Positions 16,652 to 21,164 of a DNA stretch of 64,000 bases are shown piece by piece. Position numbers and translations under genes: made by a program. Under the pieces are notes generated by a model. It was not told where the DNA came from. It made no database searches and worked only from the letters and a program-made list of their open reading frames with translations. Source of the DNA: Terriglobia bacterium (GTDB taxonomy: Bacteria > Acidobacteriota > Vicinamibacteria > Vicinamibacterales > CAVVIG01); NCBI GenBank assembly GCA_020073005.1, contig JAIQFX010000014.1:1-64000 (forward strand). The letters are read 5' to 3'. The stretch's first letter is position 1. Each line of letters opens with the position of its first letter.

Positions 16652-16981
16652 CTACTTCGTTTGTTGCGGGACGTAACCCGGGGGCAGGGCCGCGCCCTCG
16701 CCGAAGAAGAAATCTTCCATGTGCTTGGCGACGAGGTCCTGCGCTTCCTTCTGCCACGGCATCAGGCGGTACTCGTTGAGGATCATCTTCATGCGATCCT
16801 CCCAGAGCTTCCACGCGTCCTTCGACACGTTCTCGTAGATCCGCTGCCCGAGCTCGCCCGGCCACGGCGGCGAGTCGAGTCCGTACAGTTCCTTCTGAAA
16901 TTTCACGCACATCACCTTGCGCCCGGACGTGTTGGTCGCCGGGCCAGGCGGGGGCGTATCGTGCCCGCAGGAATCAGCCAT
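16652..16981 (-). CDS. yggX: Fe(II)-trafficking / oxidative damage protection protein
   Basis: Small YggX-family protein, 109 aa (family usually about 90). The conserved core includes CVKFQKELYG, the PWPGELGQRIYENVSKDAW block and MPWQKEAQDLV. In enterobacteria it protects iron-sulphur enzymes and helps manage labile iron. The first 23 residues are an extra, Pro/Gly-rich tail; an internal ATG (MCVKFQ) is an alternative start near the family norm. It overlaps the ATP-grasp gene by 8 nt and is the last gene of the radical SAM operon, which carries an oxygen-sensitive cluster protein. Confidence 0.88.
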   Translation of the reverse strand: MADSCGHDTPPPGPATNTSGRKVMCVKFQKELYGLDSPPWPGELGQRIYENVSKDAWKLWEDRMKMILNEYRLMPWQKEAQDLVAKHMEDFFFGEGAALPPGYVPQQTK

Positions 16982-18314
16982 GGTGAAGATTGTAGTCCAC
17001 CTGCGCGGCGGGCAGCACCGGGAATTCCGCGTCGATCGCGAAGCGCAGCCGCGCGTGCGCGTCGCGCAGCGCGCGCTCCACGTCGCGGGGCGACGCGGCC
17101 CGCGCGAAGATGAAGCCGAGATAGCTCGCGCCCTCGGGCAGCGGCGCCAGCCGCTGGTCCATCTTCGCGGTGATGCGCAGGTCGGTGACGTGCTGGACCG
17201 CGCGCGCGGCGTCGACGCCGTCGACGCCGCGAAGAATGCCGCGCCGCGGAATCGGAATCATCATCACGCCTGACGCGGCGGCCTCGCGCACCCACCCGTC
17301 GGGCGACTCGCCGAGCGCGTGACGCAGCAGCAACTCTTCGAGGGGACGGGAGTCGGTGTCGCCTGCATTCCGACTCCCGTCCCCTCTGACAAACGTGAGC
17401 GCGCGAGCGCAGAGACCGCCGATGGGCCGCGCCGCGACCTCGAGAACGAACACCCCTTCGTCATTGACGCGGCACTCGGCATGGACTGGACCGTGGCTGA
17501 GCCCGAGCGCTGTCGCAGCTCGAGCGACGGTACGCGCGATCGCGTCCTGCACGCCGGCCGGCGCTGACGATGGCGTGAGGTAAATCGTTTCTTCGAAGAA
17601 CGGACCGTCGAGCGGATCGGGCTTGTCGAAGATCGCGAGCGTGTGCAGCGCGCCGTGGTGCATCAGGCCTTCAAGCGCGTACTCGCGTCCCGGAATGAAT
17701 CCTTCGATGAGCGCCGTGTCGTGCGCCTCGTTGCGCTCGCCGCGAACATCAGGAGACCCGAGAAGCGCTCGCAGCCGCGCGATCGCCGAAGCGAGCGACG
17801 CCGGATCATCCGCGCGCATGACGCCGCGGCTGCCGGAGAGCGAGACGGGCTTGAGGACGCAGGGGAACGCCGGTGGCTGGAGGCTGGGGGCTGGTGGCTG
17901 GCTGACCGCTGACACATCGGAGCCGACAGCGAAAGTGACGAACCACGGCACCGGAAGTCCGGCATCGCGCAGCCGTTCGCGTGTGAGCTGTTTATGGCGC
18001 GCGACGGCGGCCGCTTCGGCAGAGTGCCAGGGCAATCCGAGCGCCTGCGCGACGCGCGCCGCGATGACCGTCGGCCGGTCTCCGACAACCAGGACACCGT
18101 CAACCGGACGCGTGCGCGCGGCGGCAGCGATGGCGGAGACCGACGCCTCCTCCTTGTGAAATCGAATCGGGATCGCGGCGTCCTGCCATGGATCGTCGAG
18201 ATTGGCGCAGCGATCGGTCGCGAAGACGAGCTCCACCCCGAGCCGCTCGGCCGCCTCGCCGAACGCGCGCGTCTGATATCCGGTCGTCGTCGCCAGAAGC
18301 AGTACTCTAGCCAT
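16974..18314 (-). CDS. ATP-grasp ligase-like protein (carboxylate-amine ligase fold)
   Basis: 446-aa ATP-grasp protein. The N-terminal preATP-grasp domain starts ARVLLLATTTGYQTRA; the central domain has CVLKPVSLSGSRGVMRADD (ATP-binding Lys and loop), a YALEGLMHHG strand and the C-terminal metal-binding EVAARPIGGLC. It should join a carboxylate to an amine or thiol; the substrate is unknown. It sits 52 nt downstream of the radical SAM selenoprotein and overlaps yggX by 8 nt, suggesting a shared pathway. Two repeat-derived in-frame inserts occur at about residues 137-147 and 310-324. The start at 18314 (MARVLLL) avoids nine residues of repeat sequence. Confidence 0.85.
   Translation of the reverse strand: MARVLLLATTTGYQTRAFGEAAERLGVELVFATDRCANLDDPWQDAAIPIRFHKEEASVSAIAAAARTRPVDGVLVVGDRPTVIAARVAQALGLPWHSAEAAAVARHKQLTRERLRDAGLPVPWFVTFAVGSDVSAVSQPPAPSLQPPAFPCVLKPVSLSGSRGVMRADDPASLASAIARLRALLGSPDVRGERNEAHDTALIEGFIPGREYALEGLMHHGALHTLAIFDKPDPLDGPFFEETIYLTPSSAPAGVQDAIARTVARAATALGLSHGPVHAECRVNDEGVFVLEVAARPIGGLCARALTFVRGDGSRNAGDTDSRPLEELLLRHALGESPDGWVREAAASGVMMIPIPRRGILRGVDGVDAARAVQHVTDLRITAKMDQRLAPLPEGASYLGFIFARAASPRDVERALRDAHARLRFAIDAEFPVLPAAQVDYNLHHG
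17341..17385. repeat. Inverted repeat, family C (GGGACGGGAGTCGG), inside ATP-grasp gene
   Basis: AGGGGACGGGAGTCGG (17341-17356) and its perfect inverse complement CCGACTCCCGTCCCCT (17370-17385) around a 13-nt loop. It is read in frame as GDGSRNAGDTDSRP just before the LEELLLRHALG helix. The sister copy lies at 56606-56693. Confidence 0.85.
17872..17903. repeat. GGCTGGAGGCTGG-type tandem repeat inside ATP-grasp gene
   Basis: Tandem GGTGGCT/GGGGGCT units translated on the minus strand as SQPPAPSLQPPA, a Pro-rich insert directly before the ATP-binding FPCVLKP strand. Confidence 0.75.
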
Positions 18315-18366: not shown

Positions 18367-19803
18367 TCACACCAGAGCCACCTGCTCCGGATTCGGCTCG
18401 GCTCAACAGTACCAGGGCTCGTTCAGGTACGGCACCGTCGCGCGATCGCGCGCCGGGCGCGTCGCATCGGGAGCCGGCGGCAACCCGGCCCGCTCGCGCG
18501 CGAGCGCTCGAATCTCGGCAAACACCGCGCGCCGATCGACGTTCAGCCGCATCCCGACGATCGCGGCGATGTCCCGATGGAGCGCGTCGACGCGCGGATC
18601 CGGATGCGACCAGCGGTACGTCAGCGTTGCCGGATCGAATCCGAGAACGTGCCGCCGCATCTCGTCCAACTCGAGCAGCCGCGACCCTTCGGGCACGAGC
18701 AGCCGGATCGCGAGCTGAATCGGCGCGACGTGATCGACAAGCTCTAGATCAGAAATGGTTTCGAGCAGCTCGGCGTACGACGCGAGCGTCAGCCACGGAT
18801 GGAACGCGACGAAAGTCGCGACGATCGTGACGCCCGCGTCACGGCACAGGGCGACGGCCTCGATGAAGTCCGCGCGCGTATGCCCCTTGTCGAACAGCGC
18901 CAGCGTGCGATCGTCGATCGACTCGACGGCACTGGTCACGAACGCGCAGCCCGTGTCCGCCAGGCGCGGCAGCAGATCGCGATGCCGCAGCAGATGCTCG
19001 ATCTTGATCGTGACGTCGTAACTGACCGATGGATGCGCCGCGTGCAGCGCGTCGACGATGCGCATCGCGTGCGTGGGGCCGTTGAAGAAATCCGGGTCGC
19101 CGAAGGTGATGTGACCGGCGCCAGCCGCGACCTGCGCCGCGACGTCCGCGAGCACGACCTCGGGCTGGACGACGCGGAACTGGCCGTTGTAGATCGGCAC
19201 GACCGGACAATGACGGCACAGATGCCGGCAGCCGCGGCTCGTCTCCGTGTAGCCGACCAGCCGTCGCTCGCCATCGGGCATCTGCAGCGACGCGTACTGC
19301 ACGAGCGGCGGCAGACCCGTCCGATCGGGCACGAGAAACTGAAGACGAGGAAGAGGACGTTTAACCGCGGAGATCGCAGAGCTGGAGTCGCACTCTTCCG
19401 TTCTCTGCGAACTCAGCGTTCTCCGCGGTACGACGTCGACGCTCCGCGCGATCGCGGCGAGATCCGCCTCGAACTCGCCGCCCAGCACATCGTCGACACC
19501 GAGCGAGCGCAGCCATTCGGCGTTCAGCGGCGCGTACAGCCCGAACGCACACACACGCGCGGTCGGGTTCAGCGCTCGCGCCTTGGCGATCACCGGCTCC
19601 GCGAGTCGCGTCGCCGTGTGCATCGGCAAGTGAAATGCGATCAGATCCGCCGACACGAGCATCGCGGCGTCGAGGCGACCTCTGTCCTTCGCGACGTCGA
19701 TCGCCGTGACGGTCGATCCCGCTTCGCGCAGCCAGGCCGCGGCCGACGCGAGCCCGAACGGCTGCCGGCCCATCTCGTACGTGCTGATGAGAACGCTGTG
19801 CAT
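18367..19803 (-). CDS. CUAEP-tail radical SAM selenoprotein (UGA at 18403-18405 read as Sec)
   Basis: Radical SAM enzyme with an N-terminal B12-binding-like domain (about 1-120), cluster cysteines Cys192, Cys196 and Cys199 (GCRHLCRHCP), and a TIM-barrel up to about 440. A conventional reading stops at a UGA after NEPWYC, but translation beyond it gives AEPNPEQVALV and then a real UGA. That reconstructs the C-terminal CUAEP signature of a known radical SAM family in which the second position is Cys or selenocysteine. The full product is 478 aa with Sec467. Residues about 127-150 are an in-frame repeat insert. The substrate is unknown; an ATP-grasp protein and YggX follow in the operon. selA/B/C are not in the window. 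Confidence 0.85.
18370..18405 (-). promoter_or_regulatory. Candidate bacterial SECIS hairpin after the Sec UGA
   Basis: Downstream of the UGA the mRNA can fold as follows: GCC (18402-18400) pairs with GGU (18373-18371) and GAGCC (18399-18395) with GGCUC (18379-18375), with one bulged U. Inside, ACC-like pairing leaves a bulged U and a six-base apical loop beginning GG about 15 nt after the UGA. A bulged U and G in the loop match the bacterial pattern; the fold was drawn by hand. Confidence 0.45.
19357..19436. repeat. 80-bp MITE-like element, family B, inside the radical SAM gene
   Basis: Begins ACGTTTAACCGCGGAG, identical to the end of the GxxExxY cassette, and ends CTCCGCGGTACGACGT, an imperfect inverse copy; the centre has CGCAGA / TCTGCG arms. 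No gene inside. It is open in the coding frame and encodes the linker between the B12-binding-like and radical SAM domains. Confidence 0.75.
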
Positions 19804-19853: not shown

Positions 19854-21164
19854 ATGGACGACCGCTCCTTCTTCGGCCACCCGCGCGGCCTCTCCACGCT
19901 CTTCTTCACCGAGATGTGGGAGCGGTTCAGCTACTACGGCATGCGCGCGTTTCTCATCCTGTACATGACGGCGCCGGCCGCCGCGGGCGGCCTCGGCTTC
20001 GCGGACACCGACGCCGCGTCGATCTACGGCACCTACACCGGCAGCGTCTGGGGCGCCGCGATCCTCGGCGGGCTGGTTGCCGACCGCTGGCTCGGGCAGT
20101 ACCGCAGCGTCCTTATCGGCGGCAGCGTGATCGCCCTCGGGCACTTTTCGCTGGCGTTCAAAGCGCTGCCCTTCTTCTACCTGGGGCTGTCGCTCATCGT
20201 GGTTGGAACGGGACTGCTCAAGCCGAACGTGAGCATTCTGGTGGGTTCGCTGTACGAGCAGGGCGATGCGCGGCGCGACTCGGGCTTCTCGATGTTCTAC
20301 ATGGGCATCAACCTCGGCGCGTTCCTTGGACCGCTCGTCGCCGGATATCTCGCGCAGCGCGTCGACTGGCACGCCGGCTTCGCCTGCGCGGGCGTCGGCA
20401 TGACGCTGGGCCTGATTCAGTACGTGATCGGCCGGCGCCGTCTGCAACCCGGGATCGAACGGCTCGCCGAGCGACCGCAAGCCACGTCCGCGGCGGGCGC
20501 GACCTCCGCGGGATTCACGACGGCCGAATGGAAGCAACTCGGCGCGATTGTGATCTTCTTCCTCGTGGCCACGTTGTTCTGGGGCGCGTACGAGCAGGCC
20601 GGGTCCACGCTGACGCTGTTCGCAGATCGCTACACGCGGCTGGAACTGTTCGGGTTCTCGTTCCCGTCGTCGTGGTTCCAGACCGTGCAGCCGACGCTCG
20701 TCATCCTGCTCGCGCCGGTCTTCGCCTGGCTCTGGCTGCGACTCGGATCGCGCGAGCCGTCGGTGCCGGCGAAGTTCGCGATCGGCGTCCTGTTCATGGG
20801 ACTGGCGTTTCTCGTGCTCGTGCCGGCCGGCACGATGGCGCAGGGCGCGGCGGGCGTCCGCGTGAGCCCGTGGTGGCTCATCGTCTCGTATTCGATTTCC
20901 GAGCTGGGCGAGCTCTGCCTGAGCCCGGTCGGCCTCAGCGTCGTCACGAAGCTCGCGCCGGTGCGCATCGTCGGCCTGATGATGGGCGTCTGGTTCCTGT
21001 CGAACTCGTTCGGCAACAAGCTCGCCGGATCGGCGGCCGGATTCTTCAGCTCGATGCCGCTGCGAAGCCTGTTCGGCGATGTGGCGGCGATCCTGCTCGT
21101 CGCGTCGGTCGTCGTCTTCCTGCTCGTGAAGCCCGTCCGGCGACTAATGGGCGAAGTGAATTAG
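19854..21164 (+). CDS. Proton-dependent oligopeptide transporter (POT/PTR family)
   Basis: Inner-membrane MFS transporter, 436 aa, importing di- and tripeptides with protons. The diagnostic first-helix motif is present as EMWERFSYYGMRAFL (about residues 20-34), followed by GGLVADRWLGQYRSVLIGG and GTGLLKPNVSILVG. Later helices contain ISELGELCLSPVGLS, another POT signature. The length is slightly below the usual 450-500, mostly from short loops; about 12 hydrophobic segments can be drawn. It is transcribed away from the radical SAM gene, and no partner genes adjoin it. Which peptides it prefers cannot be told. Confidence 0.9.
   Translation: MDDRSFFGHPRGLSTLFFTEMWERFSYYGMRAFLILYMTAPAAAGGLGFADTDAASIYGTYTGSVWGAAILGGLVADRWLGQYRSVLIGGSVIALGHFSLAFKALPFFYLGLSLIVVGTGLLKPNVSILVGSLYEQGDARRDSGFSMFYMGINLGAFLGPLVAGYLAQRVDWHAGFACAGVGMTLGLIQYVIGRRRLQPGIERLAERPQATSAAGATSAGFTTAEWKQLGAIVIFFLVATLFWGAYEQAGSTLTLFADRYTRLELFGFSFPSSWFQTVQPTLVILLAPVFAWLWLRLGSREPSVPAKFAIGVLFMGLAFLVLVPAGTMAQGAAGVRVSPWWLIVSYSISELGELCLSPVGLSVVTKLAPVRIVGLMMGVWFLSNSFGNKLAGSAAGFFSSMPLRSLFGDVAAILLVASVVVFLLVKPVRRLMGEVN

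What the first reader, a model, noticed from the sequence alone, without database searches (positions are those of the whole stretch)
18367..19803. In-frame UGA in a radical SAM gene is a selenocysteine codon (CUAEP tail)
The frame stops at UGA (18403-18405) after NEPWYC, but the next codons read AEPNPEQVALV then a true stop, giving WYC-U-AEP. This is the C-terminal signature of a named radical SAM family in which the second tail position is Cys or Sec. A chance stop followed by an exact family signature is very unlikely. A standard gene call would lose the last 12 residues, including the catalytically suggestive tail, and the organism must encode Sec machinery.
Basis: partly seen in the sequence, partly recalled or inferred. 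Interest (0 to 1): 0.95.

Follow-up and report, generated by a model that had tools for sequence, protein, structure and literature searches.

The report
Selenocysteine-tailed radical SAM enzyme gene
An apparent stop codon near the end of this soil bacterium's enzyme gene is really read as the rare amino acid selenocysteine; the enzyme belongs to a named but biochemically unstudied family that nearly always occurs with an amino-acid-joining enzyme, which hints at an unknown selenium-dependent small-molecule pathway.

Summary
The minus-strand radical SAM frame meets UGA at 18403-18405, reads AEPNPEQVALV and stops at 18367-18369. Read through, it scores 627 bits (cut-off 500) against NCBIfam NF040546, 'CUAEP/CCAEP-tail radical SAM (seleno)protein', so the reading is already built into a public model. 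I confirmed it independently. The genome has tRNA-Sec, selA, selB, and a selD with its own in-frame UGA. Of 129 distinct family members, 102 have C-UGA-AEP/SEP, 25 have Cys-Cys, and 2 have the order reversed (UGA-Cys, 'UCAEP'), a form I found in no source. A SECIS hairpin 19 nt after the UGA is kept by compensatory changes in Sec genes and is gone in Cys genes. All 37 UGA-bearing Acidobacteriota genomes have selA; 3 of 8 genomes with a complete Cys form lack it. New functional lead: an L-amino-acid-ligase-type ATP-grasp enzyme, next door here, occurs in 48/48 and 33/35 genomes with this enzyme, against 6/249 and 8/263 without. The nearest named relative is ArsL, which makes the arsenic amino acid of arsinothricin. 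I infer an ArsL-like step that builds an unusual amino acid, assisted by the vicinal Cys-Sec tail, then ligation. The substrate is unknown, probably not arsenic.

The parts
18367..19803 (-). CUAEP-tail radical SAM selenoprotein gene, 478 residues with Sec467; radical SAM motif C192-x3-C196-x2-C199; N-terminal B12-binding-like Rossmann domain
   Evidence: Translation with TGA=Sec; NCBIfam NF040546 627.1 bits against cut-off 500; Pfam Radical_SAM 57.4 bits, B12-binding 29.0 bits (below its cut-off of 32.1)
18403..18405 (-). In-frame UGA read as selenocysteine (Sec467)
   Evidence: Aligned with Cys in 25 relatives and with TGA in 102
18372..18390 (-). Bacterial SECIS hairpin: 7 bp CCGGAGC/GCUCUGG with apical loop AGGUG; loop starts 19 nt after the UGA; -10.4 kcal/mol
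   Evidence: Fold; compensatory changes across 76 Sec loci and loss in 25 Cys loci; fits the published bSECIS model quoted from PMC13188914
18367..18369 (-). True stop codon, also UGA, 12 codons after the Sec UGA
   Evidence: Sequence
16974..18314 (-). ATP-grasp ligase of L-amino acid ligase type, directly downstream; partner gene
   Evidence: Pfam ATP-grasp_4, LAL_C2, ATPgrasp_N; PDB 3vot L-amino acid ligase BL00235, E 4.9e-36; co-occurrence 48/48 in the phylum sample and 33/35 in a second class
16652..16981 (-). YggX-type Fe(2+) trafficking / oxidative damage protection protein; frequent neighbour, possibly incidental
   Evidence: Pfam Iron_traffic 112.8 bits; found within about 7 kb of the rSAM gene in 40 of 107 loci
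19854..21164 (+). Divergent POT-family oligopeptide:H+ symporter; neighbour in 27 of 107 loci, link uncertain
   Evidence: TIGR00924 399 bits; neighbourhood count

Best explanation
SHOWN by sequence: the gene encodes a radical SAM enzyme whose second tail position is selenocysteine, inserted at UGA through a SECIS hairpin just 3' of the codon by a complete Sec system (SelA, SelB, SelC, SelD) in the same genome. SHOWN statistically: it works with a particular L-amino-acid-ligase-type ATP-grasp enzyme, because the two co-occur almost perfectly in two phyla even where the genes are not adjacent. INFERRED: the enzyme is an ArsL-like radical SAM enzyme that builds an unusual amino acid, possibly by moving the 3-amino-3-carboxypropyl group of SAM onto an acceptor, and the ligase then joins that amino acid to another to give a dipeptide-like product. 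INFERRED: the vicinal Cys-Sec pair at the flexible C-terminus reaches the active site and acts as a chalcogenol pair, either as a redox couple (like the Cys-Sec tail of thioredoxin reductase) or as a soft ligand that holds the acceptor. The confidence below is for the whole chain as the leading explanation; the Sec reading alone I put at 0.98.
For: Sec reading: family score 627 bits; selC, selB, selA, selD present; 102 CU, 25 CC and 2 UC members. SECIS: 469 of 532 hairpin pairs form in 76 Sec loci against 383 +/- 7 when arms are shuffled among loci (maximum 414 of 10,000), loop AG(G/T) in 75 of 76; Cys loci form 3.0 of 7 pairs on average. selA present in 37/37 UGA genomes against 5/8 Cys genomes (Fisher p 0.004). 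Partner: ligase in 48/48 CUAEP genomes against 6/249 others, and 33/35 against 8/263 in a second class; ligase identity. ArsL kinship: 272 bits to NF040542, 32-33% identity over most of the chain, and ArsL-type proteins also end in a Cys-Cys tail, RCCLKC. ArsL-type genes also sit near ATP-grasp genes in Alicyclobacillus, Priestia and Pantoea. ArsL chemistry: PMC8552651. C466, position 467, A468, E469 and P470 invariant (Sec read as Cys) in 31 aligned proteins.
Against: No mass spectrometry or activity data. The enzyme is below the ArsL equivalog cut-off (272 against 450 bits), and no arsenic genes lie near CUAEP loci, so the acceptor cannot be inferred from ArsL. The ATP-grasp proteins of the ArsL clusters are only distant relatives of this ligase (27% over 283 residues). 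The fold also matches radical SAM enzymes with other chemistries, such as AprD4, OxsB and TsrM. Co-occurrence counts are not corrected for shared ancestry.
Confidence: 0.55

Rival explanations
1. Ordinary stop codon: the protein ends at Cys466 and the AEP reading after it is untranslated or coincidental.
For: A mechanical ORF call stops there. A RefSeq record of Thermomicrobium roseum also ends the homologous CDS at the same UGA.
Against: Conserved AEP and a covarying hairpin downstream in over 100 relatives, Cys replacing the UGA in others, and a full Sec system.
Confidence: 0.01
2. The Cys-Sec pair is a metalloid or metal ligand: the enzyme attaches a SAM-derived group to a thiophilic atom such as arsenic, selenium or tellurium, as ArsL does with As(III).
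For: ArsL is the nearest named family and carries its own CC tail. Vicinal CU motifs are listed for organometal and metal-handling selenoproteins such as SaoL, HgcA and MbdU in PMC13188914.
Against: None of the ars proteins of three ArsL clusters has a homologue near any CUAEP locus examined. The tail spacing differs from ArsL by about 50 residues.
Confidence: 0.2
3. The tail only protects or repairs: Cys-Sec is a redox couple that keeps the iron-sulfur cluster or a substrate disulfide reduced in aerobic soil bacteria, with unrelated core chemistry.
For: Fe-S upkeep genes are frequent neighbours: YggX in 40 of 107 loci, NifU-domain proteins in 15 loci, mostly of the deep branch. CU, UC and CC all occur, as expected of a redox pair.
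Against: Tail residues E462, W464 and A468-P470 are also invariant in the alignment, suggesting a defined docking site rather than a generic reductant. YggX adjacency may be inherited gene order.
Confidence: 0.2

Closest known systems
NCBIfam NF040546, CUAEP/CCAEP-tail radical SAM (seleno)protein
   Same: Full-length match, 627 bits against cut-off 500, with the CUAEP tail
   Different: Nothing in the window gene. Two Anaerolineae-class relatives depart from the family name with UCAEP
ArsL, arsinothricin biosynthesis radical SAM protein (NF040542; RCCLKC tail)
   Same: Homologous along most of the chain, same CX3CX2C core, C-terminal Cys-Cys pair, an ATP-grasp gene near several members
   Different: About 32% identity, 272 bits against cut-off 450, no Sec in the members seen, a linker about 50 residues shorter before the tail, and arsenic genes around it
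L-amino acid ligase BL00235 (PDB 3vot) for the partner gene
   Same: Whole-length ATP-grasp similarity, E 4.9e-36, with LAL C-terminal domain
   Different: Substrates of the window ligase are unknown; no activity data
AprD4, radical SAM diol dehydratase (PDB 6fd2)
   Same: Best structural match of the predicted model, Z 26.7 over 405 residues
   Different: 20% identity; no shared tail; the fold is common to many radical SAM enzymes with a B12-type N-terminal domain
Radical SAM selenoproteins listed in PMC13188914 (TIGR04167; TrsS NF045646)
   Same: Radical SAM selenoproteins
   Different: Different families. NF040546 is not among the 119 families/subfamilies of that 2026 inventory

Membership tests
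CUAEP/CCAEP-tail radical SAM (seleno)protein, NF040546 | Whole-protein score above the curated cut-off | tested here: met
   627.1 bits against 500
CUAEP/CCAEP-tail radical SAM (seleno)protein, NF040546 | C-terminal (Y/F)-C-(U/C)-A-E-P tail | tested here: met
   WYC-TGA-AEP at 18394-18414
[quoted passage not shown]
   5-nt loop AGGUG, 7 bp, 19 nt, -10.4 kcal/mol
Bacterial selenoprotein gene | Organism encodes SelA, SelB, SelC and SelD | tested here: met
Bacterial selenoprotein gene | Cys in place of Sec in some homologues | tested here: met
   25 Cys-Cys members of 129
Bacterial selenoprotein gene | Selenium or Sec detected in the protein | not testable with these tools
   Needs mass spectrometry or 75Se labelling
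ArsL (NF040542) | Score above the curated cut-off of 450 bits | tested here: not met
   272.3 bits
ArsL (NF040542) | RCCLKC tail | tested here: not met
   Tail is WYCUAEP
ArsL (NF040542) | Arsenic gene neighbourhood (arsM, arsQ, arsR, arsB, arsC, arsN1) | tested here: not met
   No homologue of the ars proteins taken from the ArsL clusters near any CUAEP locus examined
L-amino acid ligase (partner gene) | ATP-grasp core plus LAL C-terminal domain | tested here: met
   PF13535 104.7 bits, PF18603 58.5 bits, both above cut-off
L-amino acid ligase (partner gene) | Peptide bond formation between free amino acids | not testable with these tools
   Needs enzyme assay

The most novel reading that the evidence does not exclude
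The CUAEP radical SAM selenoprotein and its L-amino-acid-ligase partner are the two-enzyme core of an undescribed, selenium-assisted pathway in Acidobacteriota and Chloroflexi-type bacteria. It would make a dipeptide-like metabolite around a SAM-derived amino acid, with a vicinal chalcogenol tail that tolerates C-U, U-C and C-C orders.
Probability: 0.4. Interest if true: 0.75.

Novelty: new member of a known kind. Interest (0 to 1): 0.5.

Why it matters
The window gene is a clean selenoprotein that standard gene calling truncates, as in the T. roseum RefSeq record. The family model exists, but the family is missing from the 2026 inventory of 119 prokaryotic selenoprotein families/subfamilies, and I found no paper on it. 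The Sec and Cys forms are a natural experiment: the RNA hairpin is kept where Sec is used and lost where it is not. The near-obligate amino acid ligase partner and the kinship to ArsL give a concrete, testable route to an unknown metabolite and to what a vicinal Cys-Sec pair does in a radical SAM enzyme.

Tried and rejected
Rfam on the window gave no match at gathering thresholds, which is uninformative here because the hairpin was found by folding and comparison. A single-sequence fold z-score of the hairpin region was unremarkable (-0.87), so single-sequence energy is weak evidence and covariation was used instead. Automatic clustering of neighbouring ORFs merged overlapping frames in GC-rich DNA and was not used for counts, except for the NifU-domain cluster; targeted BLAST was used instead. 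An energy-only SECIS rule passes 88 of 102 CU genes, but also 9 of 25 Cys genes with unrelated loops and spacings, and misses both UC genes; the fixed-register covariation is the stronger test. Arsenic as substrate was considered and is disfavoured by the lack of ars genes. The two Haft papers cited as references 63 and 64 in PMC13188914 are not held, so whether they mention this family could not be checked.

Full report
Observation. The sequence at 18367-19803 (minus) is as described: CX3CX2C radical SAM protein...NEPWYC, TGA at 18403-18405, AEPNPEQVALV, TGA at 18367-18369. The read-through product is a full-length member of NF040546 (627.1 bits, cut-off 500).

Sec machinery. The genome (5.86 Mb, 179 contigs) has tRNA-Sec (Rfam 60.4 bits, cut-off 47; ARAGORN tRNA-SeC, anticodon tca), SelB (347.6 bits, cut-off 242), SelA (541 bits, cut-off 268) and SelD (349 bits, cut-off 125) whose own frame contains one TGA. 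None of these lies in the window.

Relatives. Genome searches gave 48 Acidobacteriota-sample genomes over the cut-off, 80 named loci, mostly Acidobacteria but also Chloroflexi, Planctomycetes, Calditrichia, Proteobacteria and others by record title, and 35 genomes in the class of an Anaerolineae bacterium. Of 129 distinct members with a readable tail, 102 are C-TGA, 25 Cys-Cys, and 2 TGA-Cys. On a FastTree phylogeny the Sec/Cys label changes at least 11 times and Sec is the majority state, consistent with repeated replacement of Sec by Cys, though direction was not formally tested. The nearest relative is 81% identical and also has TGA.

Reversed tail. L096/L149 (G297) and L162 (G582) read EEWY-TGA-(TGC/TGT)-AEP. 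The proteins are 86% identical, form one branch, differ in the second codon, keep the hairpin with an AGTTG/AGTTT loop, and both genomes have tRNA-Sec over the cut-off. In one genome SelA was checked and is present. The hairpin is weaker there (-5.5 and -6.0 kcal/mol), so this variant is well supported but not proven. It shows that either member of the pair can be Sec.

SECIS. In the window the hairpin is CCGGAGC-AGGUG-GCUCUGG at 18390-18372, 19 nt after the UGA, -10.4 kcal/mol, within the published bSECIS limits (PMC13188914). In 76 distinct Sec loci the same register forms 469 of 532 pairs, against a mean of 383 (sd 7, maximum 414 of 10,000) when 3' arms are shuffled among loci; loops begin AGT or AGG in 75 of 76. 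In 25 Cys loci the same positions form 3.0 of 7 pairs and loops vary. Because the arm overlaps coding sequence for EQ-x-A-L, part of the conservation is protein-level, but the arm-shuffling control and the Cys set argue for RNA.

Sec system and tail. In the Acidobacteriota sample selA is present in 37 of 37 genomes with the UGA form; among 8 genomes with a complete Cys form, 3 lack selA and selB (Fisher p 0.004). selB was over cut-off in 35 of the 37; the exceptions are G110 and G287. Several Cys-form loci close to the window gene (L057, L062, L063, L064, L066, L074) come from genomes without selA, while others keep selA.

Partner. The gene directly downstream (16974-18314) is an ATP-grasp enzyme with an L-amino acid ligase C-terminal domain, closest solved relative BL00235. 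An orthologue at E below 1e-40 is in all 48 CUAEP genomes and 6 of 249 others in the phylum sample (two of those six, G080 and G213, carry split CUAEP genes), and in 33 of 35 against 8 of 263 in the second class. In many genomes the two genes are on different contigs (for example G297: C10 and C6), so linkage does not explain the pattern. Relatedness of the genomes is not corrected for.

Chemistry. The nearest named family is ArsL, which moves the 3-amino-3-carboxypropyl group of SAM to As(III) (PMC8552651). ArsL-type proteins are about a third identical and end in RCCLKC, and several lie near an ATP-grasp gene, an MFS exporter and ArsM. CUAEP loci show no ars genes. The predicted fold (pLDDT 88) resembles AprD4 and cobalamin-type radical SAM enzymes, which does not fix the chemistry. 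I therefore infer amino-acid-building chemistry followed by ligation, with the Cys-Sec pair as a redox couple or soft ligand; the choice between these is open. The comparison with the thioredoxin reductase Cys-Sec tail rests on general knowledge.

Known or new. The family and its Sec status are already encoded in an NCBI model name, so the window gene is a new member of a known kind. NF040546 is absent from the 119-family/subfamily inventory in PMC13188914, and full-text searches for CUAEP and CCAEP found no paper; the library lacks most subscription journals. The near-obligate ligase, the UCAEP order, and the Sec/Cys hairpin contrast are, as far as these tools show, not described.

Noticed in passing
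L096 9350-9355; L149 and L162: Reversed tail UCAEP: the UGA is in the first of the two Cys/Sec positions in two genomes of one Chloroflexi-type class, with the hairpin kept.
   Followed up: partly
L132 8363-8368 (Thermomicrobium roseum NC_011961.1): The RefSeq CDS WP_012643191.1 ends at the Sec UGA; the sequence continues AEPLEDPSGPVASQ..., with a hairpin downstream, so the deposited protein appears truncated.
   Followed up: partly
window 18367-18369 and 18403-18405: UGA is used twice in one gene, once as Sec and once as the terminal stop 12 codons later. About half (35 of 77) of the Sec loci with a readable tail end on UGA.
   Followed up: partly
G000:C133:33644-34573: selD of the same genome contains an in-frame TGA, so SelD is probably a selenoprotein too.
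   Followed up: no
L134, L167, L168: RCCLKC-tail ArsL-type genes on Alicyclobacillus, Priestia and Pantoea plasmids sit near ATP-grasp genes (with MFS and ArsM genes in two of them), suggesting that arsinothricin-like amino acids may be built into peptides.
   Followed up: partly
L072, L075, L076, L078: An arginase/agmatinase-family gene lies directly downstream of the CUAEP gene in several Chloroflexi-type loci.
   Followed up: no
L022-L041, L091, L126: A NifU-domain (Nfu-type) protein gene is near the CUAEP gene in many members of the deep branch and a few others.
   Followed up: partly
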